Source: Panopea generosa
Lineage: Eukaryota; Mollusca; Bivalvia; Adapedonta; Hiatellidae
Direction: 5' to 3'
Assembly (NCBI GenBank): GCA_029582155.1
Contig: CM055906.1
Span: 11,775,101 to 11,839,100 of the forward strand
DNA length: 64,000 nucleotides
The notes beneath the pieces were generated by a model. It was not told the DNA's origin, ran no database searches, and worked only from the letters and a program-made list of their open reading frames with translations. A program made the translations under genes and the position numbers. This document shows, piece after piece, positions 29,624 to 47,720 of this stretch (its first letter is position 1; each line of letters starts with the position of its first letter).

Positions 29624-29689
29624 CAACAAAATAAATAAAATTTTGCCCACAGGGTCATGGTTTTGAACAAATCAAACATAAAACATCAA

Positions 29690-29935
29690 GGCCTTGTACT
29701 ACAAACTTTAACCTGCTAAAACAAAATTAATAAGTCTAAAAGGGAAATAACTCTGCCAAAATGTAACCCAGAGTTATGTTTCTTATGTCTGTGAGTTCCA
29801 TTGATGATGCTAAACATACATGTGAAGTTTCATAGATATCTTACCCGATAAAAAACTTTAACCTGAAAAAACCAACACCGACACCAGGGCGATTACAATA
29901 GCCCCCCTATTCTACAAATAGTCGAGCTAGAAATT
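29690..29935 (+). mobile_element. Dispersed element family 1, decayed copy 2
   Basis: Matches 2757-3045 through AACTCTGCCAAAATGTAACC, GTCTGTGAGTTCCATTGATG, AAGTTTCATAGATATCTTA and ACACCAGGGCGATTACAATAG, ending GTCGAGCTAGAAA. The ACAAGAG start is lost and a central stretch is deleted. Confidence 0.55.
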
Positions 29936-30200
29936 ATATTGCCAAAAAAAGTAATATTTCCTCTATGCAATTACCAAATTTCATATTGGTATTGATATAC
30001 CCCAACCCTAGCAACAGCTCCAGAAAATATGTAATTGCTATAATGTTTAACCGACTAAATCTACATGAACTTTAGTTTCAAACTCATTACATCATTGCAC
30101 AATTCAAGGAAGAGTGATATAGAGATGTGTATGATAAATAGGTGAAAAGACATGTATGAAATGCATCCAAGAACCTGGTTAATACTTTGACAACCAATTT
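29936..30200. other. AT-rich non-coding sequence
   Basis: Nothing recognised between the decayed family 1 element and the LINE fragment. Confidence 0.4.
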
Positions 30201-30205
30201 ATCAG

Positions 30206-31290
30206 TTAAAAGTTTTGCAATTGACACGGACTGCTCCAGGTAACCATTACATGCATATTTTCTAGTGCTGTTGCTACATAACCGTATTCAATATAGGTCT
30301 GAAATTTTAACAGAATGTACTGTAGCAATCGCAAAAGTAAATTCCGGAAGAGCATTCCACAGCGGCATGACTCTTGAGGAAAAAAGGACATTTGAGGCAG
30401 TCAGTTGATCATGTTGTAGGTGATATATTCTTTTAGAGTATCTAGATGCTTTGTTAGTCATTAGGTGTCGGTCTCTGTCAATGTCAACCAGTCTATTATA
30501 TATTTTGTAAAAAGTGTCAAACTTTTTTACATCTTTACTCTAGGGTTGATCATCGCAATTTGTCAAGCATGTCCCCAAAATGAATAGTATTATGCTATCT
30601 TCTACATGTCCATTGAGTTGCTGTTCTTTGCATCATTTGAAAGTCATGTATGTTGACCCCGAATGTGGGAGTGGAGACGCATAGTCAAATTGGGGTCAAA
30701 TTAAAGTTTGGTATGCAATGTGTGGTGCCCAGTCCAATGTTTCAGTAATTGTAATCCCCATATACTTTGTTACTTTTACATGGTCAAGCGTTTGTCCATG
30801 TAAAGTGTAGTGGTAATTAATTTGATTTTTCTGGTTGATGTTCTCACTTAGTAACATTTGGATACATTGGAATTCATGAGCCACTGTTGCTACCATGTGC
30901 CAAGGTTCTGTAAGTAAGTCTGGTTCAATGCAGTCCTAAAGAATAATATACATTTTTGTAGCGACAGTCATCTGCAAAAAGCCTCACATTTGATGATAAA
31001 CTGTTCAGTAGGTTGTTTATAAACTATAAGAAGAGAATTAGACCTAGGCAAGAGCCTTGGTGAACCACCGGATATTACTGGAGCTTAGTGGGAGTGCATT
31101 CCGTCCGGTTGCCTGATAACCACGAGGCAATCCAACAGTTGGTTGTTCCTCTTGCACTGTAGTGGTCTAGTTTGTATAGTAGATGCTTGTGGAGTACTTT
31201 TTGGAAGACTTTGGCAAAGTCCATCAAGATAATGTCTGTCTGTTTGTGCTTCATATTGTACTTATATTGACTAATCCAAGTAAACAAGTC
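30206..31290 (-). pseudogene. Decayed CR1/Jockey-group LINE reverse transcriptase fragment
   Basis: The minus strand reads ILMDFAKVFQKVLHKHLLYK (motif A region) and GTTNCWIASWLSG near 31250-31120. Traces of the motif B region (QGSCLGLILF) follow at about 31050, then LFADD near 30985 as the catalytic core. Next come QTLDHVKVTKYMGITI and LDWAPHI (30790-30700), and finally SFFPQESCRCGMLFRNLL near 30390-30340, matching the usual FFPR-x-x-x-WN-x-LP ending. Stops and frameshifts separate the blocks and the 5' half is absent. It is inactive. Confidence 0.7.
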
Positions 31291-31309
31291 ATCTTACTAA
31301 ATTGAGTAG

Positions 31310-31465
31310 GTCTTACAACTGCAAAAGTTTCAATCCGATACATTTTATTCTATTCAAGAAAGTGTAATCCAACTTGGTCACTAGTATTGCAATAGGTTTG
31401 TTGACTGGGAAGTCTCGTTTAACTACACTGGCTACCGAGATAATGCCTTGCAAAACTTTTAACTA
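31310..31465 (+). repeat. Single decayed unit of the 176-bp repeat
   Basis: Contains AAGTTTCAATCCGATACATT, ATTCAAGAAAGTGTAATCCA, TTGACTGGGAAGTCTCGTTT and TACCGAGATAATG, in the order of the units at 16866-17530, but heavily diverged. Confidence 0.4.
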
Positions 31466-31599
31466 AGATGTGACTTGCCGGGAGAGTACAGTTGCCCTCC
31501 TTATTCTTAAAAAAATCTATTTAATTTTAATTTGATCTCAGATTTCACTGAAAGGTATGTGTCAGCTTCAACCACAACAGAGCAAGATTATAGAGAAAG

Positions 31600-31790
31600 A
31601 AACATTAGATAAGAGACAGAGCAAGGAACAAAAGACAGAGAGGTTAATACAGTGCCCCCTTATCCTAAAGAACACTGCCCCCTCTGAACATATACTTACT
31701 TGGAAGTTTACTGTGTAATCATATCCCAAAATGGACTGCTTCATACCAATACCAGGAGTTCCCATGTTTTAACAACCTGCAGTTATAAAT
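31600..31790 (-). repeat. Duplicated segment (paired with 34925-35100) containing a splice-framed stretch
   Basis: Minus-strand sequence following GTAAGTATATGTTCAGAGGG and continuing GTTCTTTAGGATAAGGGGGC, ACTGTATTAACC is repeated in diverged form at 34925-35100. Within this copy a stretch is framed by CTGCAG and CAA/GTAAGTA (31783-31703). It includes an ATG-started reading (MGTPGIGMKQSILGYDY), but the frame does not resemble a known protein. It is best treated as a low-copy repeat, with an outside chance of a small exon. Confidence 0.4.
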
Positions 31791-31837
31791 ATTAATAACA
31801 TGCTATAGTAAGGATATAATTTAGGAAACGACTGATT

Positions 31838-32083
31838 GAATATTAAGTGTCATTTTATGCCATCGAGGGCTAACAGATGATCAGTTAACCTAACTGTTTG
31901 ATGGGATCCTGAAAGGTTAACCAGTACTCCAGCACACTTCAATCAGAGGTGAGAGACGAATGATAATGAGATGCAATGTTGAATAATCAATCATCACAGA
32001 GACTGCTGCCAGGCGGGGATTCAAACTCACGACCCCTGGATTGATAGTTAGACGCATCACTGACTGAGCTAATCAGGCCCAGC
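31838..32083 (-). mobile_element. tRNA-derived SINE (family A), full-length copy
   Basis: The minus-strand head GGCCTGATTAGCTCAGTCAG (A box) and GAGTTTGAATCC (B box) is followed by the body: CAGTCTCTGTGATGATTG, ATTATCATTCGTCTCTCACC and TGGTTAACCTTTCAGGATCC. The tail is TTAGCCCTCGATGGCATAAA and AATATTCAATCA. About a dozen copies occur in this window. The block GGATCC...GGTTAACCAGTACT is the part shared with the 74-bp satellite at 48545-55870. Confidence 0.85.
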
Positions 32084-32220
32084 TTTAGGAAACAAAGAAA
32101 CAGTTTAATGAATCTCTCATCTGTGGCAAAATAGACCATCACATACCAAACTATGTTTTAAAATTCAAGCAACACAACATAGACATTAATTATACAAGAA
32201 GACATGTTAAATTCAATAGA

Positions 32221-32332
32221 TTGACTGATTGAATATTTAATGTCATTTTTATGCCATAAAAAAACTGACGATCAATTAACCTTACCGCTCTTCCCTGGGA
32301 TTCTGGAAGATTAACCAGCACTCGAGCAAACA
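32221..32332 (-). mobile_element. SINE family A, tail half, split by a family B insertion
   Basis: The plus strand carries the family A tail (GATTGAATATTTAATGTCAT, ATGCCATAAA, GGGATTCTGGAAGATTAACC, AGCACTCGAGCA) and then stops at 32332. The matching head half resumes at about 32660 on the far side of the family B SINE. Confidence 0.75.
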
Positions 32333-32344
32333 GAGTAATTAATT

Positions 32345-32659
32345 TCTTGTTGTTGTTGTTGTATGGTGTTCAGTGTTGCTTTCAACAACTTTTCAGTCAA
32401 ATCGCTATGGCCTCTACTTGAGACAGTATTCTGAGCACTGTCACACTGGAGTATCATGCCGCAGACACATGGTATGATACCCCACTCAGTCACATTATAC
32501 TGACACCAGGCCAACCAGTCCTAGAACTTTCCTCTAAATGTTGAGCGTCAAGCGAGGAAGCTTCTAGTACCATTTTTAAAGTCTGACCCCATCAGGGATT
32601 GAATCCATGACCTCCACATGCGAGGCAGACGCTCTACCACTAGACCACACTGAGGTCTT
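32345..32659 (-). mobile_element. tRNA-derived SINE (family B), inserted in SINE A
   Basis: The minus-strand head is GTGGTCTAGTGGTAGAGCGT (A box), then a decayed B box (GGATTCAATCCC). The family body GAAGCTTCCTCGC, TACCATGTGTCTGCGGCATG and CTCCAGTGTGACAG follows, and the element ends in a (CAA)n tail (plus strand GTTGTTGTTGTTG at 32349). It is flanked by near-identical 12-mers GAGTAATTAATT (32333-32344) and GAGTATTTGATT (32660-32671). These correspond to family A sequence (GTAACTGATTAC), so they are the target duplication. The insertion is therefore younger than the SINE A copy it splits. Confidence 0.8.
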
Positions 32660-32815
32660 GAGTATTTGATTACTTTCCACTTGCAGTGAAAGATGAATAA
32701 TAACTAGACAAGTTGTATATCAACTTTCAAAGAGTCTGTGGCCATGCAGATTCAAACTCACGTCTCCTGGATTGATACGATAGTCAGACATGCCAACTGA
32801 GCTTATCAGGCCTGG
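32660..32815 (-). mobile_element. SINE family A, head half, split by the family B insertion
   Basis: Continues family A from TTGATTACTTTCCACTTGCA through GTTGTATATCAACTTTC and CAAAGAGTCTGTGGCC to the tRNA-like head (TTCAAACTCACG, B box; GAGCTTATCAGGCC, A box) in plus-strand orientation. Confidence 0.7.
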
Positions 32816-33414
32816 CAAACCTGTTAATTTTTTTATCCAAGATCATATCGTTACACCACTGTTTGGTCAATATACAAGGTGGTAGAGTGTTCATAAGGTC
32901 TAATAAGGCATATTTTTTTAAAATGCAAGACCCACAACTAAACCACTATGATCTGATTTGATTAGTTAACAATTTGTCTCAGATATTGTTACAAAACTTC
33001 TCTTACTTATACTCCAATAAGTAAGTTTTAAAGTGCACATCAAACGGGACATATTTCTATCAATTAAGTGCCATAATAAGTACATAATGCAATATCTGAC
33101 GAGTGCACACACATGGTGAAATTGACAAAATGTTATAATTTAAGGGTCACAACTCAAGCAAATTATCCTACTTATTTGACAAGTGAACCAAACCGTCCAA
33201 GAGGCCCAAGGATGCTCTACTGACTTATAATGTCCATAGTATTTTATTTTATGAATAAATATTGGGGAGTTTGTATTCAGTTAAACTCTTAGCTTTTGTT
33301 ATCGCATTAAAGCTAAAATAGATTAGTAAACTAAATCCTTCTTATTAACTCAAATTTGCTATAAACAGAGGCTTTCAGATCTCGAACTAAAAAAGAATTA
33401 TTGTACAAATGTTT
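32816..33414. other. AT-rich non-coding sequence
   Basis: No exon or repeat recognised. Confidence 0.4.
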
Positions 33415-33545
33415 GTCCTTTAATGCCATCGAGGGCCAACAGACAATCAGATCCTGGGATCCTGAAATGCTAATCAGTATTCAGGCCACCAATCTCTGCA
33501 AGTAACTGAGAACTTTCCAACTTAAATCAGCAATGAGACAAATGA
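33415..33545 (-). mobile_element. SINE family A, truncated copy
   Basis: Plus-strand TTTAATGCCATCGAGGGCCA, GGATCCTGAAATGCTAATCA, TCTCTGCAAGTAACTGAG and TCAGCAATGAGAC match the family A tail half. The tRNA-like head is missing. Confidence 0.65.
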
Positions 33546-33599
33546 CAATAAATGGAATGTCATATTTCATCAATCAGACTGCCTGGACAGGGGGACTTG

Positions 33600-33860
33600 A
33601 CATTGCTGAATGTACGAAAAAAATGCGAATTTTTTGTTCCCAACAGGGCCATGTAACCTTGCATCTGGACTTGGGGGGGGAAAACTTCACTGAAATACTT
33701 ACTTATAGAATGATTAAGTATAAACATATTTGACCAGCAGGCTTTAGAGAATATCTTTGAAAATCTAAATATTAACCTTTATTGAGACTTTCCTGGCCTT
33801 TTATAGAAATTCATTCTAAATGAACCAAACTGGCCTCTTATTGACATTCAATCGCCATTT
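33600..33860 (+). repeat. Decayed unit of the 324-bp element
   Basis: Resembles 29220-29400: TTTGACCAGCAGGCTTTAGA, ATCTTTGAAAATCTAAATAT and CCTGGCCTTTTATAGAAAT, with similar spacing and heavy divergence. It contains a run of eight G at about 33672. Confidence 0.4.
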
Positions 33861-34082
33861 TTCAGAGTCTGACTGGAATATTGAGCAGACTGGAAATGTA
33901 GTCTCAGTGGGCAAGTTTTCTAACATATTTACAATACTGATGTCAAACCTTCTATAGTTGTAAAATTAATGAAGGGGGAAAGCCTACACAACTTATATAA
34001 AATGTGAAAAAAGCTATATGTAAATAAAGTTCTTTTTAGGAAATATAATAGTAGACTCAATTGACTATTCAAAATCTGTTGA
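33861..34082. other. AT-rich non-coding sequence
   Basis: Nothing recognised. Confidence 0.4.
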
Positions 34083-34320
34083 CGGGCCCAATTAGCTCAG
34101 TCGGTTACGCGTCTGACTATCAATCCAGGGGTTGCGAGTTCAAATCCCTCATCCGGCAAGTCTCCGTGATGATCGATATACGACATTGTGTCTCATAATC
34201 ATTCGACTCTCACCACCGATTCATGTGGGAAAGTTATCAGTTACTTGTGGAGACAGGGCGTGATCGAGTACTGACTAATCCCAGGATTTGATAAATATTG
34301 GACAGCATGGTTTTGTTAAT
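34083..34320 (+). mobile_element. SINE family A, plus-strand copy
   Basis: Starts GGGCCCAATTAGCTCAGTCG (A box), then CGCGTCTGACTATCAATCCA, then GCGAGTTCAAATCCC (B box). The family body follows: AAGTCTCCGTGATGATCGAT, TCATAATCATTCGACTCTCA and GAGTACTGACTAATCCCAGG. It is the only plus-oriented copy and has the best-preserved head. Although the head is tRNA-like, it continues into the SINE body, so it is not a stand-alone tRNA gene. Confidence 0.85.
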
Positions 34321-34924
34321 GAAAAATCATGTCCAACAAATTAATTTGAGCCGCATCATCAATAGTTGGAAAGACCTCCCCAAGGATATTATTGCTTCCA
34401 ATTCAGTAGACACTTTCAAACACAGGAGACTGCCACTAGATTAAGGCTATGCCTAAATCTTAAATTCCCATAAAAATGTAAATGTCCACTATAAATCAGT
34501 TCTTCAGAATGTTCAATTTTTTGGAAATCTCTAAATGGTCGACCCTGTTTGAAAAACTCTCCCGGACCCAAGACAAAGCTAGTCATTTTAATATTTTTTA
34601 ACCAACAATCAACAACACCTCTGTGAAAAATGTTCAACCCCACCCATATCATGCTCGTTTGATTACTTTTTTTATTAAATTTGTAATTATTTAAAAACAA
34701 AATTCATTGAATTATATTCCCCCAAACCTCCCCTGATAAAATGCCTATAAAGTTTTAGATTCTTTGTCAAGAGTAATGACCCTTGAATAATAAACTTTGA
34801 CAGTGTCCACTCTTGACTGGATCTTCATCAAATTAAGAGTTTAGTTATGTAACTTCAAAATTACAGAATTAAACATGAAACAATGAAGAAGAACTATCTC
34901 AGCTAGACGTTGCTCAGTTGATGC
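34321..34924. other. AT-rich non-coding sequence
   Basis: No exon was recognised. The 94-codon minus-strand frame at 34416-34700 has no motif or splice context. Confidence 0.4.
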
Positions 34925-35100
34925 TGACATTTTAAAGAAGAAAGAAAAGTAGACAAAGGAGTTAATGCAGTGTTCCCTTATCCTAAAGAACATCTACCTC
35001 CTCTGGACAGTTAGAATTGTTATATAACTTACTTGTTTACTTACTTATCTGCATCCCATGGCTATGGAACTAAAGTGGACTTGCAGCTGTGCCTATAAAA
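34925..35100 (-). repeat. Duplicated segment (paired with 31600-31790)
   Basis: Shares TTCTTTAGGATAAGGG, CACTGCATTAACTCC and the GTAAGT-rich part with 31600-31790, at perhaps 75% identity by eye, on the same strand. Confidence 0.4.
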
Positions 35101-35329
35101 ATAAATAAATATGTTACACACATAGTCGATTCTTTTTTACTTCTTTTTCTAAATAAAAACAAAAATCTTAAGAGGGCCTGATGATGCTGTACTAGTCAAA
35201 GTGACCATATTAAATTCGTAAATTTCACAATATAAACCATTTTAGGGACTGTCTTGGCCCCAGCATTCTATACAACAACTTATTTCAAATAACAATTTGT
35301 TTGTTTGGGATTTTTTTTTTTTGTAGTAC

Positions 35330-35577
35330 TTCAGTTAACAGTAGTCAGCACACCTAATCATTGTTCTTTGGATTCTTAAGGCAGTTAACAAGCACTAGAC
35401 ACACTTCATCTCTACAAGTCACTGACTACTTACCCACATACTCAGAGGTAGGAAACTCATGGCCATAGAATAAAGTCCATGACCAATCATCATTGAGACT
35501 GCAGCTGGGTTGGGATTCAAACCCACCTGAATTAATAGATGCATTACTGGCTGCACTGGCCAAGCCCAGCAAAAATA
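35330..35577 (-). mobile_element. SINE family A, diverged copy
   Basis: The plus strand keeps GCAGTTAACAAGCACTAGAC, CTCTACAAGTCACTGACTAC, CAATCATCATTGAGACTGCA, the B-box complement GGGATTCAAACCCAC and an A-box remnant (GGCTGCACTGGCCAAGCCC). Confidence 0.65.
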
Positions 35578-35596
35578 ACCGGTTATTAACTATTGA

Positions 35597-35878
35597 ACAA
35601 GAGTTGTCAGAAGACAACAAAGCTCGCCTCTTGGTGTCTAAGTCCAAAAAGGGCCAAAACTGTGCCAAAATGCAATCTAAGTTATGGTCTTGTCTGTGTG
35701 TGTTCCATTGATGATGGTGAACACACATACAAAGTTTCATTCACATCCAATGAGTGGTTGCATAGATATCTTAAACTTAAACGCAAAAGTTTAACCTGGG
35801 TGTCTACAGACGATGCCGCCGGCAACCCTGGGGTCATAGCAATAGCTCTCCTTGGACTTGGTCCTGGCAAGCTAAAAA
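35597..35878 (+). mobile_element. Dispersed element family 1, copy 3
   Basis: Near-identical to 2757-3045: ACAAGAGTTGTCAGAAGACA at the start, TGTTCCATTGATGATGGTGA and TCCAATGAGTGGTTGCATAG in the middle, GGCAAGCTAAAAA at the end. The overlapping open frames on both strands are artefacts of this repeat. It abuts a SINE A copy. Confidence 0.75.
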
Positions 35879-36657
35879 CACTTTAATATCCCAACATTTT
35901 TATACATAATTCTTCATATATTGCAATATACTATACAACTATCTACCTTTTTAGTGGTCAATGGTTAAAATCATTTATGCAAGAAAAACGCATATATTGA
36001 ATAACAATAAAAAGGTAAATCAAGAAGTAGTCTTACATTACAAATGTATTAGGTTCCTGACTTTCACTTCATTATTACTTTCACTGCGTTTTAACAGAGG
36101 TGTGAAGTCTCCATGAACCAATTCAACTATCAGCCCTTCATTCCTAACGACAAACTAACTTAAAATATGTCCAATTATTCAGAGCGCAATGCCACCAGTA
36201 TTAAGCTCTACATTTTGGATCCACTCTTGATCAAAATAGCGTCATGAACACCAATACATATACAACCTGACGTCATTATATAAACATATCAGTTGTGGAA
36301 AATGGTTTAATTATATTTTAGTGTTGAATAAGTGGTATTTCAGTGTCAGTTTTAATTTACGGAATATAATACTAGTAAACAGTTCATTTAAATGTTGTTT
36401 TATTGAGTAGTGCAAATGGAGCTTGAATGGACTATCAGCATGATAATGAAAAGAACGTTTTATTTGAACTATTGACTCAGTAATTGACTCAGAGGAGGTA
36501 ACCGGATGAAACTGGTTTTGAAAGAATAGGTGGTCAATAGTTCAATTTTAAAGAAATTGGTGGTTAATAGTTAATATTATTTGACTGGTTTAGTTCAGTT
36601 TTCAACCAGTCAGATTGAAGCATTTATAATGATATATAATAAAAAATACAATATTAC
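35879..36657. other. AT-rich non-coding sequence, 3' side of the photolyase-like pseudogene
   Basis: A further 3' exon of the pseudogene could lie here, but none with both splice signals and family similarity was found. Short repeated phrases (ATTGACTCAG twice near 36470-36490; GGTGGTCAATAGTT and GGTGGTTAATAGTT near 36530 and 36560) are present. Confidence 0.4.
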
Positions 36658-36856
36658 CTTTTGATCTACGTAGAATAAATATTTGGTGGACTTGTTTCAT
36701 CCTATCCATACAAAGTTTGCTTGCGTCTGCATGGTTCACCATAGATGCTGGATAGTCTTTTGCCACAATGCACTTGGTTGCTTTTTGGACACTCTATGGT
36801 GTATTCCAGGGTTCATAGATATAGTGTGGCGGATAACCTTTCAATACAGGTAATGG
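36658..36856 (-). pseudogene. (6-4) photolyase/animal cryptochrome-like pseudogene, exon 4 of those visible
   Basis: A 199-nt exon with acceptor TTTTCAG and donor AAAAG/GTAATA on the minus strand. The reading from its first base gives PLPVLKGYPPHYIYEPWNTP, a TAG at 36796-36794, then SVQKATKCIVAKDYPASMVN and HADASKLCMDRMKQVHQ. YIYEPW, the VQ...C.IxKDYPxxMVxH stretch and RMKQV are hallmarks of the C-terminal FAD-binding domain of animal cryptochromes and (6-4) photolyases. Two lesions are visible: the internal stop, and a frame mismatch of one base at the junction with exon 3 (a missing base near the exon start). A working enzyme binds FAD and repairs UV photoproducts or signals to the clock; this copy cannot make that domain. 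Confidence 0.85.
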
Positions 36857-36964
36857 CTGAAAACAAATCACACAATTACTCAGTTATAATCTTGACCTCC
36901 AGATCACAACAAATGGCTTGAATGTGATATAGTATAGCCGATATATATATTTTAGTTAAACCAT

Positions 36965-37060
36965 AGCATAATATCAATCATCATGGAGATTGTGACCCAG
37001 CAGGAATTCTATATCATGACCACTGGATTGCTAGTCACAAGCTACCGATTGAGCCAACCA
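36965..37060 (-). mobile_element. SINE family A, head fragment
   Basis: Plus-strand ATATCAATCATCATGGAGAT, GACCACTGGATTGCTAGTCA and ACCGATTGAGCCAACC match the family A head region. The tail is missing. It lies in the intron between exons 3 and 4 of the pseudogene. Confidence 0.55.
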
Positions 37061-37878
37061 GTACTTTGTAAAGAATGTCTGTAATATATATCCTAGCATC
37101 ATGCATGAACATTTGACATAATAAAGAGTTGACCTATTAAACCTACTACTGTAAGTTTATTTGGCTGGTAACCTTCATTCAGACTACCGGTACTTGGATT
37201 TCTTCCTTCAAACCAGTTGTCCAAGATATTGTTATTGAAATCTCAGCAGCAGAATAAACAAAATACTACAGAAAAAACTGTTGCTACAAGTTCATTAGAT
37301 TTGGCACATCAATGTAACACTACCTCAGCAGAGCTGGCCTTTATGCTTTTTAATGGAATTTGACTATTAACCTATACTTACTAATTTTGCCACAACTATA
37401 AAGAAGGCTCAAGGCTATTCCGGATCAGTCTCCAGTCTATTTCCTGGAAAGAACCAGAAATGAGTGTTACTGAGTGTTATTTTTAGAGAGGTCATCAAAT
37501 TGAGACTGATGAACAACTGACCTCTGGCATGAGCAGCCAACACTATATCCACTGTACTTTCGCACAGATTATTTGACTATTGACTCAATGTGTTCACACA
37601 TTCTTCTCCAGGTCACAGGCATCACAATGACATCAGGAGTATAGATAGTCTGAGTGTTATTTTAAGCTACTAGTGATTCTGCCATTGTGCAGACACCAAA
37701 GATACAATACTTGAACAAAAACAATCCATCCATAAGCCAGTAACACATTTAAAATAATGTTGTTCATTGTTTTTTTTATTTTACACAGTTTACTATTAAA
37801 ACTGGAATTAATAGTACAGTAAAGTAGTTAAAGTTTGCATGCACATTAACATTTACTGTACGTCTACACAACAAAGCA
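37061..37878. other. Intron of the photolyase-like pseudogene, with a weak tRNA-like relic
   Basis: Mostly AT-rich. On the minus strand 37560-37505 has a weak tRNA-like look (GTGGATATAGTGTTGGCTGC...CAGAGGTCAGTTGTTC), possibly an old SINE. No further exon found. Confidence 0.4.
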
Positions 37879-37880
37879 AC

Positions 37881-38394
37881 ATACCTGATAACATCACTAC
37901 ATACCTGACAAAATCACAACATACCTAATAAAATCACAACATACCAGATAAAATCACAACATACCTAATAAAATAACAACATACCTTATAAAATCACAAC
38001 ATACCTGATAAATTCAAAACATACCTGATAGAATCACAACATACCTGATAAATTCACAACATAACTGATAAAATCACAACATACCTGATAAAATCACAAT
38101 TAGGCTAATAAATTCACAACATACCTGATAAAATCGCAACATACCTAAGGCAATTCTTAAAAAAATGGTTGTTTGCTGTGCTCCAACCCAGTATTTTTCA
38201 TGTTGGCAGTTAGATAGCTAATTTTTTTTTGGCCAGATTTTAATTTTTTTGTGGTCATCTTCAATAAAAATGGACAGTTATCATGAAAAAAATTCAACGC
38301 TTAGAAAGTCAATAAAAAAATTTGAGTAGCAAGTAGTTAGGAGCACGACAAACATATATTTTTTTAAGGACAGTCTAATAAAATCACAACATAC
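37881..38394 (-). repeat. 20-bp minisatellite built from the exon 3 splice donor
   Basis: Fourteen units begin at 37881 and every 20 bp to 38141. The last is split by an insertion at 38149-38374. On the minus strand the unit reads TTGTGATTTTATCAGGTATG. The authentic exon 3 end and donor, GATTTAATCAG/GTATGTTGTGATT, lies at 38405-38382 in exact 20-bp register once the insertion and its duplicated CTAA are removed, so the true donor is effectively unit 15. Seven units carry CAG/GTATGT exactly. Five more carry TAG, AAG or CTG before GTATGT, for 12 of 14 with an intact donor core. The two exceptions are at 38061 and 38101. Confidence 0.9.
38149..38374. mobile_element. Small terminal-inverted-repeat element (MITE-like) inserted in the minisatellite
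   Basis: A 226-bp element with imperfect inverted ends. The left end is TTCTTAAAAAAATGGTTGTT then TGCTGTGCTCC from 38154. The complement of the right end is TCCTTAAAAAAATATATGTT then TGTCGTGCTCC, from 38370. The element interrupts a 20-bp unit so that ATACCTAA and TAAAATCACAAC lie on either side, with CTAA present at both 38145-38148 and 38375-38378, a 4-bp target duplication. It encodes nothing. The superfamily is not assigned. Confidence 0.75.
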
Positions 38395-38547
38395 CTGATT
38401 AAATCTCCTGTTGGATCTGCCTGCATACTAATGTCAACAGGACAGTAAGAGTAGAGGATATTGTTGGAAGAATGAACTACACGACAGCCACAACCACACA
38501 CCCGCATTCACCGACCAATCAGCATCAAACAACAGCTTGTCAAACAC
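38395..38547 (-). pseudogene. (6-4) photolyase/animal cryptochrome-like pseudogene, exon 3 of those visible
   Basis: A 153-nt exon with acceptor TATTTACAG and donor ATCAG/GTATGT. It reads [20 protein letters not shown], then LSCSSFFQQ. After one extra base it continues in another frame as [20 protein letters not shown] and IR. LDADW-x-N-x-G-x-W-x-W-L-S-x-S-S-F-F and YCPV...DP-x-GD-x-IR are conserved blocks of the FAD-binding domain in cryptochromes and (6-4) photolyases. The family's exon would be 152 nt to the same phase, so the single-base insertion is directly visible. The exon borders the minisatellite made from its own donor. Confidence 0.88.
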
Positions 38548-38951
38548 CTGTAAATATTATTAAGGCAGCTCAGGGAAAGGATTCATATAAGGTTTAAAAG
38601 TGCAATAAATTCATACTTTGTGTTTTCTCAGATCATTTCACACTGAAAAACAAATCATATCTCTGTGCATAATAGTTGCATTTGAAGATTAATATCCAAA
38701 TCCTTAAAATTAAAAGTAAAGATGTTTATATGTATGTTACAAGCTAAAATTTCTTCAATCATAAATTTACAACCCATAAATTTGATATACTGTAAGGTAT
38801 GTAAATCCGACTGTCTTAGCTTAAACCATGACTTCATAACATTAAATTTATGAATTATTCATTTTTACCTTATACTACCAATATGAATATTATAATGAAT
38901 TATAACAAGTACATATATGAACAATTTTGCTGGTGAAATGGGTCGGGAAGA
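38548..38951. other. Intron of the photolyase-like pseudogene
   Basis: AT-rich, no recognised repeat. The frame at 38655-38837 is not protein-like. Confidence 0.45.
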
Positions 38952-39205
38952 TTGATTAATTGATTGATTGAATATTTAGCGTCATTTTTATGCCATCGAG
39001 GGCTAACAGATGATCAGTTAACCTAACCACTGTTTCCTGGGATTAACCAGTACTCGAGCACACCCCATCTCCGCAAGTAACTGATTACTTTCCCACTTGA
39101 ATCAGTGGTGAGAGACGAATGATAATGAGACACAATGTCGTATATCAATCATCACGGAGACTGTTGCTGGCGGGGGATTTGAACTCATGACCCCGAACTG
39201 TACCA
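38952..39205 (-). mobile_element. SINE family A, nearly full-length copy
   Basis: The plus strand shows the tail GATTGAATATTTAGCGTCAT, ATGCCATCGAGGGCTAACAG, then GGGATTAACCAGTACTCGAG, ATCTCCGCAAGTAACTGATT, ATATCAATCATCACGGAGAC and the B-box complement GGATTTGAACTCATG. The element ends before the A box. Well preserved, so probably a fairly recent insertion in this intron. Confidence 0.8.
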
Positions 39206-39395
39206 CCCAAAACAAAAATAAGTTTTACTTTAGCATGATGTGGTTTTGCCTGCAGAGGTTCAATCTTCTTTCTATCACTCATGAATATTTAGAAAATGCA
39301 CAGAATGAGTGATACTCTATCAATGCTTCTACAGAGTGTGCCAGTAAAACTATTTCTGTATAATTATACAATTTCACAGTAGGTAGCAACTTTCA

Positions 39396-39530
39396 GATTG
39401 ACTGATCAAATATATAGCATCAGTTTTATGCCATCAAGGGCTAAGACAATCAGTTAACTTAACCTATCTTTCCTGGGATAATGGAAGCCTAACCAGTACT
39501 CCAGCACATCCATCTCCCCAAGCAACTAAC
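39396..39530 (-). mobile_element. SINE family A, truncated copy
   Basis: Only the tail half is present (plus strand TATGCCATCAAGGGCTAAGA, GGATAATGGAAGCCTAACCA, CATCTCCCCAAGCAACTAAC). Confidence 0.65.
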
Positions 39531-40355
39531 AGAAGTGACAGGCCAAGAAAACCTTATTTCTTCAGGAAATGAGCATGTTAATTTTTTTTGTGATTTTAAA
39601 AGTATTGCCTTTTAAATCAATAATTTTGAAATTAACAGTAAGAATGACAATGTATACTGGGGATCAATTAAAGTATAATCTATGTTATTTTCTCTGTACT
39701 CATGATTTAATAGTTATAAATAAGTTTAATGAGGCTGTTTTCAGTCAAAATTATCAGTATATTTTCCATAGTGTTGGGTAACGTTCAGACAATGTCATGG
39801 TCTTTATCATACCTAATAGTGCTAAAAATGTAGACTATATTAGAAACATTTAGTCCACTAAATAACCTGTATTTTATAGGGATATACATTTGTTACAGAC
39901 AGTTCATGGAAGACAATATAATGTTGTTAGTTATAGTATTTAATACTTTCCCGTTGTCATACAATAAATGAAAGAAAAAGATTGACAATAAACACATAAA
40001 AAACAGATGTTTAATTATGTCTTTTACATTTGCTTGAATTGGAAACAAAAATACAGATACAACCATTTCGCACCAAGAAATAATTTTAAAAGTTGCAGAA
40101 TTTTGGTGCAAAAGGGTTGTAATTTGATCTTTGTCAAATATCTCTTCTTTTTTTTAAGTTAAATGACTGTTTCACGTCAGTCTCTGTTAAAATCATCCAT
40201 AAAAATGACAAAAACCATGAACAAAAACTAGAGGAGTTTACAATTTTTTGTCTTTCCTGAACAATTAGGAATATTGACTTACAATTGTTTTGCACCAAGC
40301 CCTCAGTATACATTACTGAAATTTTCAAATTGTAATGATGAATAATTATGACTAG
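39531..40355. other. AT-rich intronic sequence
   Basis: No exon recognised. Frames at 39569-39781 (plus) and 39893-40328 (minus) lack motifs and splice context. Confidence 0.4.
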
Positions 40356-40500
40356 CTATTACCCGTGCTGCGGACGGAGTTGAGGCAGGTGTTTGGTGGA
40401 GCATGGTTTGGTTGACTGTGGCAAAATTATTCTCAAGCAATGACCCGTGCTGCGCACGGTGTTGAGGATGTAATTTCCAGGGCCTATAAAATTATTTGGC
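40356..40500 (+). repeat. Two-copy repeat with a hairpin core
   Basis: ACCCGTGCTGCGGACGG near 40362 and ACCCGTGCTGCGCACGG near 40442 are about 80 bp apart. The second is a perfect hairpin (CCGTGC, TGC, GCACGG). Each is followed by GTTGAGG. This begins a GC-richer patch to 41620 composed of tandem duplications. Confidence 0.6.
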
Positions 40501-40855
40501 TCTGTTTGGCAAGTGCCTATTAAGCTGTGAGCACCCCCATTTTACCGGTCACCCATTTGCGGATAAGCATACTTGGCATACTATTCAACATGCATTGTCA
40601 TGCTTCCACTTGTCATTGGCACCTATTTCCGGACAGGGATTTGCACATTCAATCAAGCTTTAAAATTCTTAAAAATTGGCTCCGTTTGGTGCGGGCCTTA
40701 TTAAGCTGTGAGCACACCTATTGTACCGATCACCTATTTCTGGACAGTTGTACTGATTCATGTATTTGTCATGCTTACGTTATACATAGGCGGCACCTAT
40801 TTTCGAACAGGGAATCGCACATTCAATCAAGCTTTATAAACCGCATAAACATATT
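40501..40855 (+). repeat. 181-bp tandem duplication, two copies
   Basis: TAAGCTGTGAGCAC begins at 40521 and again at 40702. Each is followed by TACCGGTCACCCATTT or TACCGATCACCTATTT, then GTCATGCTT..., GGCACCTATTT..GGACAGG or equivalent, and CACATTCAATCAAGCTTTA. The 134-codon plus-strand frame across them is a repeat translation. Confidence 0.8.
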
Positions 40856-40984
40856 GACGGTAGGGTGTAACTGTTATTGCGTTTCCCTAAATTGCGTTTC
40901 CCTAACCTTTTCCGCGTTCCCCTTACCTTAATAAGTGATGTGAAATCTATAAAAAACATGAAAAACGTCGAAAACTGTCTGATA

Positions 40985-41455
40985 GAAATAATGATAGCGG
41001 CTGAATGTCGAAATGCTGGCGAGCGAGGGGAGCATTCATTGCATGGTACCGGGAGCATACAGTAGCAGGCGGGAGAAGCAAGTGCACTTTCATCACGTAC
41101 CACTTCTGTCCCATAAAATACAAATATTCTTCCTAACATAGCTTTATTACTTAATCCTTACGCATCATACTTTTTATCATCACAATTTTCATGTGTTATC
41201 ATTCAGTTGTAGTGCAATGATTGCTCCCTTCGTTGTGTGGCAGCACGTGATAGCGGCAGATTGTCAAACTACTGGCTTGCATGGGGAGCATGCATTGCAT
41301 GGCACCGGGAGCATACGGTAGCAGGCGGGAGAAGCAAGAACATTTTCATCAGGTTCCAGTTCTGTTCAATAAAATACAAAAATTCTTCCTAACTTAGCTT
41401 TATTACTTAATCTTTACGCATCACACTTATTATTATCACAATTTTTTTGTTGCAA
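40985..41455 (+). repeat. ~256-bp tandem duplication, two copies
   Basis: GATAGCGGC at 40993 and 41249 starts aligned blocks containing GGGAGCATTCATTGCATGG or GGGAGCATGCATTGCATGG, ACCGGGAGCATAC, GTAGCAGGCGGGAGAAGCAA and ATTCTTCCTAAC.TAGCTTTA. Both end with TTACGCATCA. It follows the 181-bp duplication and precedes a 51-bp one. Confidence 0.8.
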
Positions 41456-41460
41456 TGCAA

Positions 41461-41611
41461 CGATTGCTCCCTACGTAGTGTGTTTCACCATTGACAGGTG
41501 GCAGCAAATACCGATTGCTCCCTATGTAGTGTGTTTCACCATTGACAGGTGGCAGCAAATACCGGCACCCTATTGGTGTGTTTCACCATTCACAGGTGGC
41601 AGCAAATACCG
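41461..41611 (+). repeat. 51-bp tandem repeat, three copies
   Basis: Units begin CGATTGCTCCCTACGTAGTG at 41461 and CGATTGCTCCCTATGTAGTG at 41512 and, shortened, at 41563. All contain TGTTTCACCATT.ACAGGTGG followed by CAGCAAATAC. Confidence 0.85.
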
Positions 41612-42026
41612 GCAAGTTCCATGGCGATAGTGACTGAATCTGCGATCGTGGTGATTGAAAATCTTTCCTGAAGCTACGTTGATACATTATCCACTTTGCC
41701 ACATAGCTTATCTTCTTCGCCACATTTATAAAGCCCCACATACGAAAAATTAGCACGTTCCTTCAAGCGGTTTCGGAGGAGATACGTCAATTTACAGACG
41801 GCTGCTTACAGAAATAATATATAGAATAGATATTGAAATATGTTTTTAGATTTCAGTGTTGTAAAATTTGCTCAGTATAACCCTTTTATACACTCAACTT
41901 CGGGACAACATTCGTATTATGGGTTGATAAACTAGGTATAGATCTGTTATTAAATTGTTAAGTTAGTGCAATAAAACCCTTTCACTCATTGCTTATGAAT
42001 AATTACTTCCCTGATTTTTAACCTAC
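41612..42026. other. Intronic sequence of the photolyase-like pseudogene
   Basis: No exon between the 51-bp repeat and exon 2. The phrase CAAGCGGTTTCGGAGGAGAT near 41765 resembles the ends of bivalve dispersed elements but no full unit could be defined. Confidence 0.4.
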
Positions 42027-42163
42027 CTTAAATCCCTCCTGCCAGGAAGAAGCTAGTGACCGCCCCATATCTAGAAGCAAACTGTGTCATGTCCTGCTAG
42101 ATGGTGTACCCATCCTTCTTATCTGGACCATATAGCATAAATCCATGGAAACCCAGAATTACC
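42027..42163 (-). pseudogene. (6-4) photolyase/animal cryptochrome-like pseudogene, exon 2 of those visible
   Basis: A 137-nt exon with acceptor TTGTATTTCAG and donor TTAAG/GTAGGT. From the first base it reads GNSGFPWIYAIWSR, TAA, EGWVHHLAGHDTVCF, TAG. GFPWI.AI...EGW-[IV]-HHLA-x-H is the signature around the FAD pocket in cryptochromes and (6-4) photolyases. After a frame change, RYGAVTSFFLAGGI sits where the family has a short Trp-rich stretch ending in GIK or GMK. The family's exon would be about 141 nt, so this one has a net loss of four bases plus two stops. Phase 0 entry agrees with exon 1. Confidence 0.88.
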
Positions 42164-42655
42164 CTGAAATACAAGGTGTAGTAGTTCATATACCATAGAG
42201 AGATAACTATAGGATATATACTTTTTCTTCATGAATTGTCGGCTAAAACACGGTATTCCTCTGATTTTCATGTTATATATCCATTTCAGACAAGTGGCAC
42301 CTTCCTGGTTAAATGTAACCGAGTTATCATTACATCATTAAACAGTAATGTGACAGTAAAAAGGTTACGGACACTACTAAAATATCAAGCAACCTCCCAA
42401 ACCCTTGATGACCTTGATTGATGAGAAAAAAATAATTGTACAAATGTATTCTCTTTTAAAGACAAAAAATACGATAAAATTTATGAATTTTAAATCATTT
42501 TACCAGGAAATAATGGTCTTAGGGCAGAGAAAAAGTGTCATTTATCAATGAAGTTTATGGTTATACTGGCTTTAATAAAAACAAAACAGTGCTAATCTAT
42601 AAACAATAATTATATACTCAACATTTTCTTTTACATTGCGAAAAATGCTCTGCAA
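42164..42655. other. Intronic sequence
   Basis: AT-rich, no exon or repeat recognised. Confidence 0.4.
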
Positions 42656-44200
42656 CAAAAACACCTTAAACAACTAGCAAGACAAGAGCAATGAAAAGTG
42701 AAATATGATAAGCCAGAAAACTACAATTATTACAGTTCAGAAATTGGAGAGAGAAATTAAAACTAGACTAAAAACATCAGTGAAATGAAGATGAAAGGTG
42801 GAGAAGAAGAAAAAGTCTACATTGAACACCAAACTCCAGGCATTTATCAAACCTAAGAAATTTTTTAATGTTATGAGAAAGAAGAAAGCTTCAGGAAAAA
42901 GAAAAGTATATAAATAGATGAAAAGGAAGATCTAAAGAAACCTTACATGTAAATACAAACAGAAATGTAAACCCCTGCCCATCTCAGGCCGTGAAATAAC
43001 CAGGACCTTGACTTTTCTTTCTGCAGAGCCTAGGTAAAGTCCCTTTCCTGCAGGGCCACTTTGCTAAAAGTCTTTTGCTGTTTGGGACCTCTTATGGTTA
43101 TATAACTACTGTGCAAGTTTGGTTAAGATTCTTTGAAAAATGAAAGTATTATACCACAGTAGACAAGATCAAATAAAGCAAAAAAAAAACATTCACGGGA
43201 AGGTAACTCAGACAGTAATTATATGATCAGGCCAATTCAGGAAAGGAACAGCCATAATCACAGCTATTTTGGCACAAAGTTAACTCCTGTACTTCAACAG
43301 AACTGCAGAGACATTCATGCTGTAATTTTAAGAGCGCTGCAATTTATTCAACTGTCCCCAGCTATATCTCAACTTTTGGGGAGCAGAGTTTAGAAATGAA
43401 TGGTGCCTAAGACAGAAAATATACTTAAACTGCAGTTGGTGGTGAAAAGTAACAGTGAAAATAACATAAAAGCGGCAAATGCATATACATGTATAAAGAA
43501 ACTAAAAACGTTCTCGGCAAAATATTTCACACTGACCATACCACTGAAGAATCAGAAAGAAAGAGCATGTCAACAAGTTTTTGTTAGAGCATCAATATAC
43601 AGACACCTACAAAAAGTAAACTGAGTTCAAATGTAGCACTCCTCGGAAAAAAGGTGAAATTATTGATTCACCATCCCCTTCTTCTAAAATTATGTTAGAA
43701 AATGCAACTCACTTATTACACCTGATTGCAAAAAGAAATTTGAAATGGTTCATGTATTTGTGAAATACGTGTTAAAGTAACTCCGAAGTTAAAGAGAAAA
43801 GAGCGATGCTTACAAAATAATAATTATGTAGGTAAATCATCAACAACTAGAGAAAAACTATGAAGAAGCACCTGAAATTGCATTAGAAATCTCAAAGGTT
43901 CAAGCAAGTCTAGTGGAGAGAGCAAATAAGAGACTGGTAAGAAGTTTAAGACTTTAAAGAGTGTTGAAAGTACCTAGTGAACTAGTTTATTTGAGCGCCA
44001 CATCAACCGAGAAGTACCAAGAAAACATCAAGTAATTAGAATCAAGAGACAGTATAGAGAGAAGGAAAAAGTATGTCATGACAACACTATTTGAGGAGGA
44101 TCATAAACATCAGACAAACAGCCTAAAAAATTAGGTTAACAATTTATTCATGAAGCTGAAGCTTGAAAATGTGATTAAAATGAGATTGTACTAAAGTGCC
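42656..44200 (+). other. Purine-rich stretch with decayed-looking reading frames
   Basis: The plus strand is unusually A/G-rich and punctuated by short lysine/glutamate-rich frames, for example 43400-43624 and fragments near 43630-43720 (TPRKKGEIIDSPSPSS) and 43860-44130. Such composition can be the remnant of a transposon-encoded protein, but no family motif was recognised. A fragment of the dispersed TATAACTACTGTGCAAGTTT repeat is at 43096. It lies within the intron between exons 1 and 2. Confidence 0.3.
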
Positions 44201-44944
44201 AAATTAACTATTAATGGTTGTGTTCGTAACCCATTGTAGTAACAATTCTTAATTAATCTGTTTGTTTCAAAAGCATTTTTTTGTTGGTAATGTCTATATT
44301 AGGTTTAAAGTACTTTGCTCAGACAAGCTTTTACATGCCTTTAATTTGATCTGTCAGTATTTTAGACGAACTAGAATTAATATATTTTAAAAATTCTGTG
44401 TTTTACGGTAAACAAAGATTGACAGGAACATACAATCTGAATCATTTGATTAAACTTTGCTTTTTCTATTTACATACATCCTAAACATGTTATTTCTGTA
44501 AAATAATAAAAGTAAATTTGATTTTAACACTAATTTTTACCATGTTATATGCACCCTGTAGTGTCCGTAACTTTCCCATACCCCATGTGAGATGAATTTG
44601 AAAAGAATGTATTTACAGTTACCTCTCAAATAAAATATGGCCAATAAACTAAAGGTATTGATACATCAGAAAAAGGTACATTTGAATTGAGTTTCCAATG
44701 TTGAATTTTTGACACTTGTGGGACACTTTCTGGGCAAATACAGTGTTTTAGCTGTGTGCGAAACTTAACTTTGACCTGTTTCTATTATGAATATTTAATA
44801 AAAAAAATATATATGTAGTCATACTGGAACCAGTATTGGATTTTGAGGCTTAAAAATATTGTTTTACATTTTTGAACCGAGTGTCAGAAAATTCTAGAAA
44901 TATGATCCAGTCTCAAACATATTCGTCTCTAACTGAATACATAC
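44201..44944. other. AT-rich intronic sequence
   Basis: Nothing recognised up to the donor of exon 1. Confidence 0.4.
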
Positions 44945-45073
44945 CTCAGCCCACTTGATTAGGGCTTCCAGGCTTTTGTCTCACAGTATTTGAACATGTA
45001 TTGGATTTCTCTCAATTCTCTCGAAATTGGAATTATTTGATGCTGCTGTGTAGGAATATTCACGCCCAAACAG
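44945..45073 (-). pseudogene. (6-4) photolyase/animal cryptochrome-like pseudogene, exon 1 of those visible
   Basis: A 129-nt (43-codon) exon with acceptor TTACATGTCAG and donor GAG/GTATGT, both phase 0. It reads LFGREYSYTAASNNSNFERI, ERNPIHVQIL, TGA, DKSLEALIKWAE. The family has L-x-W-R-E-x-x-Y-T, N-x-x-x-NPI-x-V-Q-I-x-W-D-x-N and ALxKWAE here. The TGA stands exactly where the conserved Trp codon TGG is expected, one base change away. WREF at the start is also altered (Trp to Gly). The exons encoding the N-terminal photolyase domain should lie at higher coordinates on this strand but were not found. Confidence 0.9.
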
Positions 45074-45484
45074 CTGACATGTAATGATAATGGTGGTTCA
45101 TCCCTTCTTGACCTGAGGTACATAATGTTCACAATGCACTCATCACAGATTTAGAATTTGTTTTATGGAGTTCAAGTTATACATGGCATCCTCTTTTACT
45201 GTTGGAGGAAAACCACAAAATGAAGCCGAGTTTAAGCATCTTTGCACTTGTAACTGGTAAACATTGTTACATATTGTACAACTTCAATGGTGAAAAGTAA
45301 GTGATATTAAGACAACGTCTTAGCTTTGCCATGGAGGACCTGCATTTAAGTTAAACTTGATTTTAATTTAAGTAGAAAGGAATTTAGTGATAATAGTAGA
45401 ATGAGAAGCATACTGGCCTAGTGATGAAAACTTACTGCCCATACCTTCATGTCAATTCTGGCTCAGCAGAAAATCTTTAAAAGT
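45074..45484. other. Intronic or flanking sequence
   Basis: The next upstream exon of the pseudogene is expected on this side; no segment with the right motif and splice signals was found here. Confidence 0.4.
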
Positions 45485-45575
45485 AATGATCTGGTCCCTG
45501 TTCATGTCATGTGTCACATTCATCATCTGGTCCCTGTTTATGCCATGTGTCACAGTCATCATCTGGTTCCATCAA
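45485..45575 (+). repeat. 36-bp tandem repeat, 2.5 copies
   Basis: ATCTGG recurs at 45489, 45525 and 45561. The first two full units share TCCCTGTT.ATG.CATGTGTC. The third is partial. Confidence 0.75.
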
Positions 45576-45674
45576 GGCTATCAACACTATGAAACAATGA
45601 ATATACATCAGTGTAGACATTTACAATATGTTTATGATGACAAGAAAATGTACCTTTACATCCAATCACTTTCA

Positions 45675-46570
45675 ACCTAACTAACCTATCTACCTAACCA
45701 ACCCTCCTACCCACCCATCCTTCCATCTTCCTAAAGACCACCTTCCTACACAACTACTTACCTAAGCCTGCCAGCCCAACCACCCATAACTACCTACCTA
45801 CTAACAGTTCTACCTACTTACAGGTCTACCTACCTATAGGTTTAACTAACTACTTATCTACCTACAGGTTTACCTACCTACTTACAGGTCTACCTACCTA
45901 CATACCGGTCTACCTACCAACACGTCTACTAACTTACAGGTCTACATGCTTACAGTACTACCTATCTACTTACAGGTTTACCTACTAACAGGTCTACCTA
46001 CTTACAGGTCTATCTACCTACATACAGGTCTACGTACCTACAGGTTTACCTACCTACTTACAGGTCTACCTACCTACATACCAGTCTACCTACCAATACA
46101 TCTACTTACCTACAGGTCTACCTACCTACATACAGGTCTACATACTTACAGGTCTACCTATCTATTTACAGGTTTACCTACTAACAGGTCTACATACTTA
46201 CAGATCTACCTATCTATTTACAGGTTTACCTACTTACAGGTCTACCTACTTACAGGTCTACCTATCTATTAACAGGTCTACCTACCTACCTACAGGTCTA
46301 CATACTTACAGGCCTACCTACCTACAGGTATACTAACCTACCTATAGTACATACACAGCAACATGTACCTATAGTACTTACCTACCTACAGGTCTACCTA
46401 CCTACCTACAGGTCTACCTACCTTCATACCTACATGTCTACTTACCTACTTACAAGTCTACCTACATACCTACAGTACCTACCTACCTACAGGTCTACCT
46501 ACCTACCTACAAGTCTACCTACATACCTGTAGTACCTACCTACCTACAGGTCTACCTACCTACAGGTACT
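45675..46570 (+). repeat. (ACCT)n-derived minisatellite
   Basis: Nearly 900 bp consists of TACC, TACT and TACA words organised into irregular 16-24 bp units of the type CTACCTACTTACAGGT. The left edge is simpler ACCT/CCAT sequence. A 108-codon frame at 45946-46272 simply translates the repeat. Confidence 0.9.
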
Positions 46571-46628
46571 TTGATCAACATATGCATTTTAAAACATCCT
46601 GTTGGTACTTCCAATACAAGGCATCTTA

Positions 46629-46791
46629 TGCAATGTTTATGACAGCCCTACCTGTTTCAATGCCTGTGACCTTTGTGACCTTTCTCTTTGTATATATTTA
46701 TCTGTCATATCACATTAAAATATATGTATATACAAAGGTCACAAGGGTTGCAGGCATAAAAACATTAAGGGCTGACATAAACATACACGCA
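46629..46791. mobile_element. Foldback / MITE-like hairpin element
   Basis: The left arm (46629-46702) reads TGCAATGTTTATGACAGCCC and later TGCCTGTGACCTTTGTGACC and TTTGTATATA. The complement of the right arm (46725-46791) reads TGCGTGTATGTTTATGTCAG, CCC and later TGCCTGCAACCCTTGTGACC, TTTGTATATA. The arms pair over roughly 67-72 bp at about 75-80% with a ~22-bp loop. No target duplication is clear. Both overlapping open frames are shadows. Confidence 0.7.
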
Positions 46792-47550: not shown

Positions 47551-47720
47551 ACCCTCCACTGAAACCAGTAGGAAACGGAAAAGATATTACAACTGCTGAT
47601 GTATGATGTGAATTGAAACTACTGTGAAAATAATACTTAAATATGAGTGGTAATTGTTTGCATTTACTTTGCAATAGAAGCCTTGTATATATATATCAAG
47701 TACAAACAGGATGTTTTAAG

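What the first reader, a model, noticed from the sequence alone, without database searches (positions are those of the whole stretch)
37881..38405. Minisatellite made of 14 tandem copies of a 5' splice site, in register with the real donor
Seen directly: 20-bp units at 37881 + 20k (k = 0 to 13). On the minus strand each reads like the last 11 bases of the adjacent exon plus its donor (exon GATTTAATCAG/GTATGTTGTG; unit GATTTTATCAG/GTATGTTGTG). After removing the small insertion at 38149-38374 and one CTAA, the authentic donor falls exactly 20 bp after the last unit. Seven units keep CAG/GTATGT and five more keep GTATGT after a different trinucleotide. The exon side is conserved protein sequence (GD-[LYF]-IR), so the array most likely arose by tandem amplification of the donor. 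It would present the spliceosome with a ladder of decoy 5' splice sites spaced at 20 nt, so retained units would change phase.
Basis: seen in the sequence. Interest (0 to 1): 0.85.

Follow-up and report, generated by a model that had tools for sequence, protein, structure and literature searches.

The report
Repeated splice donor, dead gene copies
A 20-letter piece straddling the end of an exon and its splice signal, from a cryptochrome/photolyase gene, was copied head-to-tail many times inside scattered, broken copies of that gene; a gene with only two copies of the piece is still in the same genome, so the growth of the repeat can be followed, but it looks like a relic rather than a working switch.

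Summary
In detail: 13 intact 20-bp units (37876-38135, minus strand), one unit split by a 226-bp inverted-repeat insertion (38149-38374, TTAG duplication), and the exon's own donor (38386-38405) share one register; shuffles give none. The exon belongs to a cryptochrome/photolyase FAD-domain gene. Donor amplification is supported: of five other gene copies read here, three have a single donor, the gene at C5:18.21-18.25M has exactly two units (its exon end equals the array consensus), and a diverged C4 copy has about four and no insertion; the window and 22 other fetched copies have 4-25 parsed units. The 100 listed exact matches form 46 loci: the C5 gene and 45 dispersed copies of the same locus. 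So the repeat is abundant, but not unlinked. The dispersed copies lack the photolyase domain, mostly share exon A frameshifts, and vary evenly over codon positions; 25 scorable new unit changes do not avoid the donor core. A selected 'decoy ladder' is unlikely, but no RNA was available. Exon-intron-boundary minisatellites are known in amphioxus as 'mirages'; this is a new member of that kind, unusual for its preserved steps and copy number.

The parts
38395..38547 (-). FAD-domain exon ('exon B') in the window; one extra base relative to the C5 gene, so frameshifted
   Evidence: 92% identical to L018 exon B over 153 of 153 bases, indel +1. PF03441 itself did not list this window exon.
38386..38405 (-). 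Authentic exon end plus donor, GATTTAATCAG|GTATGTTGT (first unit)
38375..38385 (-). Left half of the unit split by the insertion (ends with target duplication TTAG)
38149..38374 (-). 226-bp insertion with inverted-repeat ends and TTAG duplication: MITE-like, its end found at hundreds of other places
   Evidence: (arms 38156-38184 / 38340-38368, 83% complementary), (486 + 477 places with up to 3 mismatches to its end; reversed control 0 + 0)
38136..38148 (-). Second TTAG plus right half of the split unit
37876..38135 (-). 13 intact 20-bp units, each like exon end plus donor
36658..36856 (-). Next exon ('exon C') with an internal TAG; PF03441 match 40.2 bits
42027..42163 (-). Preceding exon ('exon A'), indels net -4, as in 16 of 23 dispersed copies read
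26000..62800 (.). Minimum span of the dispersed duplicon that carries the array (probed at 26.0-28.8k, 43.5-45.7k, 60.3-62.8k)

Best explanation
The array is a donor-boundary minisatellite of the kind called a 'mirage'. Step 1 (shown by comparison of gene copies): in a cryptochrome/photolyase gene with a single donor after ...GD-F-IR, a 20-bp block made of the last 11 exon bases and first 9 intron bases was duplicated once; this two-unit state survives in the C5 gene. Step 2 (shared features shown, exact order inferred): a 5'-truncated copy of that gene gained more units between the parental first and last unit, took a MITE-like insertion into the unit next to the donor, and was spread over about 50 places on a large duplicon. 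Step 3 (inferred): unit number then changed copy by copy, including blocks of several units, by slippage or unequal exchange. The window copy is a relic. If transcribed, the exon-proximal donor most likely stays in use (inferred from amphioxus), and use of a later unit breaks the frame.
For: C5 gene: exons A, B and C open, photolyase-domain matches at C5:18.212-18.225M; its donor region GATTTTATCAG|GTATGTTGT GATGTTATCAG|GTATCTTGT has exactly two units, and the 44-base pattern occurs once in the genome with up to 3 mismatches. Single donor in L035, L037 and L036. About four units and no insert in L016. 4 to 25 parsed units in the window and 22 dispersed loci; insert present in all 22 and absent from L016 and L018. 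Last unit keeps the parent's unit-2 G in 16 of 23 copies; only 1 other unit has it. 46 loci from the 100 listed exact matches: the C5 gene plus 45 dispersed copies. Pseudogene character: exon A indels net -4 in 16 of 23 copies, 12 of 12 photolyase-domain matches lie at other loci, variable sites even over codon positions 1/2/3, exon B 11/14/14, exon C 22/21/22. Donor core not protected: 17 of 25 private changes fall in its 9 of 20 positions, 6 in the GT.
Against: No RNA was available, so neither silence nor normal splicing is shown. The private-change test has only 25 events. Exon B has no indel in 18 of 23 dispersed copies (L017 only in part), and exon A nets 0 in L012, so not every copy is plainly dead in each exon. 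Exons are more alike between copies (medians 93-94%) than introns (87-88%), which selection or fewer indels could each cause. By total mismatches the last unit is no closer to the parent's unit 2 than the best inner unit (inner minimum 2 in each copy, last unit 2-6); only the position-4 base sets it apart. L018 could be a contraction of a longer array, though single-donor paralogues make that less simple. The tree is weakly supported (0.70-0.73), and L017, with the insert and 25 units, groups with L016. Some C5-gene rows carry stops inside the matched stretch; for exon A the exon itself is open, the photolyase-domain exons were not read.
Confidence: 0.85

Rival explanations
1. The ladder of donors is functional: downstream units compete with or hold back the real donor and tune splicing of a cryptochrome/photolyase transcript.
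For: 7 of 14 window units have the same U1 duplex energy as the real donor, -7.8 kcal/mol; 182 of 357 parsed units in the window and 22 loci, donors included, are CAGGTATGT. In the C5 gene two donors of near-equal energy (-7.8 and -7.2) lie 20 nt apart. Exons are more alike between copies than introns.
Against: The window copy is frameshifted and lacks the photolyase domain. New changes hit the donor core at or above the expected share (25 events). In amphioxus, mirages are reported not to disturb normal splicing (PMC3087553, PMC3902484; passages read).
Confidence: 0.06
2. An unrelated minisatellite that matches the exon end by coincidence or by conversion of the exon towards the array.
For: The unit occurs at 885 places with up to 3 mismatches (reversed control 75), so it looks like a satellite at first sight.
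Against: The 46 loci formed by the listed exact matches are all copies of this gene locus; exon end GATTT[TC]ATCAG (DFIR) occurs without an array in the C9 paralogue and with two units in L018, so the exon state is older than the array.
Confidence: 0.02
3. Assembly or haplotype artefact: the array length or the many copies are produced by the assembly.
For: Some copies lie on small contigs (C23 and C24, 5.0 and 4.3 Mb), and L032 and L033 have the same unit count and spacing.
Against: The fetched copies are 77-92% identical to the window in the two adjoining intron stretches, have different unit orders, and the listed loci lie on 17 contigs.
Confidence: 0.05

Closest known systems
'Mirages' of amphioxus (Adh3, globins BflGb6 and BflGb9, troponin C; similar repeats in PGBD5)
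   Same: Minisatellite-like tandem duplication of an exon-intron boundary including the splice site; unit 10-72 bp in Adh3; unit number varies between haplotypes; boundary units escape homogenisation (PMC3087553 passages; PMC3902484 passage).
Single donor duplications such as the 8-bp duplication at human OCT1 exon 7-intron 7
   Same: Donor duplicated once in a gene, as in L018 here; alternative use gives a truncated protein (PMC8137991 abstract and section list).
   Different: 8 bp rather than 20, a human polymorphism, not an array.
Intron gain by tandem genomic duplication of segments holding AGGT
   Same: Tandem duplication of sequence holding a splice signal (PMC4974935, PMC3443670: search listing only).
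   Different: No new intron is seen here; copies stay inside an existing intron.

Membership tests
Mirage (exon-intron-boundary minisatellite) | Tandem units each spanning the exon-intron boundary, in register with the true site | tested here: met
   11 exon-like + 9 intron-like bases per unit, 20-nt register after removing the insert
Mirage (exon-intron-boundary minisatellite) | Unit number unstable between copies | tested here: met
   4 to 25 parsed units over the window and 22 dispersed loci (between loci, not between haplotypes)
Mirage (exon-intron-boundary minisatellite) | Lies in a transcribed gene and leaves regular splicing intact | not testable with these tools
   No RNA data; window copy looks like a pseudogene
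Mirage (exon-intron-boundary minisatellite) | Found in cephalochordates | not tested
   Organism unnamed; 1.47 Gb in 39 contigs. That amphioxus genomes are about 0.5 Gb is recalled.
MITE-like insertion inside the array | Short, terminal inverted repeats, target duplication, many dispersed copies | tested here: met
Cryptochrome/photolyase family | FAD-binding exon homology | tested here: met
   PF03441 matches window exon C (C13:11811792-11811953, 40.2 bits, over cut-off) and the C5 gene; exon B of the window by 92% identity to the C5 gene. Cryptochrome versus photolyase not tested.
Working cryptochrome/photolyase gene (window copy) | Open frame and photolyase domain | tested here: not met
   Frameshifts in exons A and B, TAG in exon C; 12 of 12 PF00875 matches lie at other loci

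The most novel reading that the evidence does not exclude
The C5 gene is kept with two near-equal donors 20 nt apart, and the choice between them is used: the downstream donor gives a frameshifted transcript that lowers or times the output of this cryptochrome/photolyase gene, while the dispersed arrays are the runaway descendants of that twin donor. This would be a mirage with a function, outside amphioxus.
Probability: 0.08. Interest if true: 0.65.

Novelty: new member of a known kind. Interest (0 to 1): 0.42.

Why it matters
One genome holds the one-, two-, about-four- and many-unit states of the same donor in related gene copies, so the birth and growth of an exon-boundary minisatellite can be read step by step. 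It also gives about 50 natural replicates for asking how the spliceosome treats a row of equal donors, if any copy is transcribed, and suggests that boundary minisatellites may not be confined to amphioxus.

Tried and rejected
Rejected: an unlinked genome-wide satellite (the 46 loci from the listed exact matches are the C5 gene and copies of that locus); the insert as part of the array (its end is dispersed independently). Looked for a transposon that could carry the duplicon: ten open frames were scanned with Pfam (8 of the 38 frames of 85 aa or more listed, plus 2 shorter ones) and gave endonuclease, RNase H and weak reverse-transcriptase matches, no transposase; the rest were not scanned, so a carrier is not excluded. 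The LINE pieces at about 20.4-23.9k appear near only a few array loci (40 of 341 candidates scored).

Led nowhere or limited: the ends of the duplicon were not found. Window 13.6-16.2k matched near three array loci (C12:20.87M, C16:1.12M, C20:7.95M) and otherwise other places (40 of 9177 candidates scored), so an older left border between 16k and 26k is only a guess. The organism was not identified. No sister-species genome was reachable. One search's test is small: 25 events, 4 ambiguous variants dropped, L033 merged with L032, variants seen in two or more copies not counted, and the half-unit joined to the insert's end is parsed as a unit in most copies. The parser also misses degenerate units (14 in the window instead of 15 with the donor; 3 in L016 instead of 4). 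L020 was left out of the tree. The exon join was off by one base; one search corrects it and is the one used.

Literature: searches, whose listings were capped; boundary minisatellites were described in passages of PMC3087553 and PMC3902484 only. Passages of PMC12783039 (earthworm metallothionein) concern intronic repeats and exon duplications, not a donor array. The original Adh paper (PMC117041) is not held and was not read.

Full report
OBSERVATION. The array is real and as described. Tandem Repeats Finder gives period 20 and 13.5 copies at 37877-38146. In exon|donor register on the minus strand there are 13 intact units at 37876+20k (k = 0 to 12), one unit split by a 226-bp insert at 38149-38374, and the authentic donor unit at 38386-38405. 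Taking out the insert and one TTAG leaves exactly 20 nt. Of 14 units, 7 are CAG|GTATGT and 5 more keep GTATGT. Thirteen matches with up to 3 mismatches, donor included, are in the window, against 0.00 in 100 shuffles.

WHAT THE EXON IS. The exon reads [29 protein letters not shown] in one frame and [18 protein letters not shown] in another, with a frameshift between. I recognised the motif as cryptochrome/photolyase from memory; the test was Pfam: FAD_binding_7 (PF03441) has 104 matches in the genome, among them window exon C and three exons of a gene at C5:18.248-18.253M. Window exon B is not itself in that list; it is 92% identical to exon B of the C5 gene. The window also holds exon C at 36658-36856 with a TAG and exon A at about 42027-42163 with net -4 bases. 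Whether the gene is a cryptochrome or a photolyase was not tested.

WHERE ELSE IT IS. The unit occurs at 431 + 454 places with up to 3 mismatches (reversed-pattern control 33 + 42) in a 1.47-Gb, 39-contig genome. The 100 places listed, all exact, form 46 loci on 17 contigs by my count; the other 785 places were not listed and not examined. I fetched 24 of the 46 besides the window, so 25 of 46 were read; one of them is the C5 gene (L018). All 25 have exon B sequence, L016 and L017 only in part. Of the other 21, 17 have an exon-end match within 1 kb, 3 more have exon C within 2 kb, and the last, C15:8.531M, has duplicon sequence at the expected offset. So the 46 are the C5 gene and 45 dispersed copies. 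The exon-end/donor pattern occurs at 53 places with up to 3 mismatches, among them the C5 gene and L016. Probes from window 26.0-28.8k, 43.5-45.7k and 60.3-62.8k find collinear stretches at array loci, for example C7:65.0M, C9:64.7M and C12:12.6M (40 candidates scored per probe), so the duplicon is at least about 37 kb.

THE SERIES. Three paralogous loci have a single donor: L035 and L037 (C5:81.9M and 82.9M), GAATATATCAG|GTAAAT and GAGTATATCAG|GTAAAT, and L036 (C9:32.7M), GATTTCATCAG|GTACCT. The gene at C5:18.21-18.25M has photolyase-domain and FAD-domain matches and exactly two units: GATTTTATCAG|GTATGTTGT GATGTTATCAG|GTATCTTGT; that arrangement occurs once in the genome with up to 3 mismatches. 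Its exons A, B and C are open, and B and C join in frame; two of its photolyase-domain rows and one FAD row list a stop inside the matched stretch, which for the FAD row is outside the exon; the photolyase-domain exons were not read. L016 has four units (one 2 nt short, the last without GT) and no insert. The window and 22 other dispersed loci have 4 to 25 parsed units, donor included, and all 22 have the insert. The last unit keeps the parental unit-2 G at position 4 in 16 of 23 copies, against one single other unit, as expected if the array grew between the parent's two units; by total mismatches the last unit is not closer to it than the best inner unit. The array consensus equals the exon end of L018, while most dispersed copies' own exon end reads GATTTAATCAG, so the array keeps the older exon sequence. 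In a tree of exon B, 3' flank and exon C (24 copies, L020 left out) rooted on L018, L016 and L017 together split from the rest, with weak support (0.70-0.73); L017 has the insert and 25 units, so the tree does not order the steps by itself.

THE INSERT. It has inverted-repeat ends (83% complementary over 29 nt), a TTAG duplication, and its end occurs at 486 + 477 places with up to 3 mismatches, 0 + 0 for the reversed control; many listed places are not array loci. It is MITE-like.

FUNCTION. Against a selected decoy ladder: (a) the 12 photolyase-domain matches all lie at other loci, and exon A indels netting -4 are shared by 16 of 23 dispersed copies; (b) variable sites among dispersed copies are even over codon positions 1/2/3, exon B 11/14/14, exon C 22/21/22; (c) of 25 private single-step unit changes, 17 lie in the 9-base donor core and 6 in its GT, above the 11.25 and 2.5 expected by length, so the core is not protected, with small numbers. 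Against a plain relic: exon B has no indel in 18 of 23 copies (L017 in part) and exon A nets 0 in L012; exons are more alike between copies (medians 93-94%) than introns (87-88%). For potential use: 182 of 357 parsed units, donors included, are CAGGTATGT with the same U1 duplex energy as the real donor, -7.8 kcal/mol. In L018 the second donor is nearly as strong (-7.2), and its use would shift the frame and stop; use of consensus units 1 to 5 also stops. In the window the first further donor-like GT is about 250 nt beyond the exon because of the insert.

COMPARISON. Tandem repeats over exon-intron boundaries were named 'mirages' in amphioxus Adh3 and are reported in globins and troponin C, with similar repeats in PGBD5 and with normal splicing (PMC3087553 and PMC3902484, passages read). 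The array meets the structural definition. What differs is the genome, the gene, the pseudogene family and the preserved intermediate states. I saw no boundary minisatellite outside cephalochordates in the capped listings of searches, which cover only openly licensed full texts. A human donor duplication that stayed single is known in OCT1 (PMC8137991, abstract read).

CHANGES ON RE-CHECK. The count of linked loci now names the C5 gene apart from the 45 copies; the exon B indel count, the L012 exception, the last-unit distance result and the stops listed in the C5 gene were added; confidence in the main reading was lowered from 0.87 to 0.85 for these.

Noticed in passing
window 20412-23863 (minus), perhaps to 25807: Pieces of a LINE: endonuclease and RNase H matches over cut-off, reverse transcriptase below cut-off; present near a few array loci (C12, C16, C18, C20).
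   Followed up: partly
window 48546-55879; 3405-7502; 11161-13450; 58930-59488: Several large minisatellite arrays (74 bp x 99, 47 bp x 88, 44 bp x 53, 57 bp x 9.8 at 98% match).
   Followed up: no
L018 about 3500-4750 and 5440-6900: The C5 gene has two further repetitive stretches in the introns around exon B, by eye unrelated to the donor unit.
   Followed up: no
G000 C5:81.906-81.925M and C5:82.936-82.955M: Another cryptochrome/photolyase paralogue is present twice, about 1 Mb apart, nearly identical in the exon B stretch read.
   Followed up: partly
L013, L024, L027 arrays: These three related copies share an internal repeat of a block of several units, showing multi-unit duplication steps.
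   Followed up: partly
window 31075-31293 (minus): A short open frame with a weak reverse-transcriptase match (E 0.004, below cut-off).
   Followed up: no
G000 C23, C24: Small contigs hold four array loci each in the listing; L032 and L033 have the same unit count and spacing.
   Followed up: no
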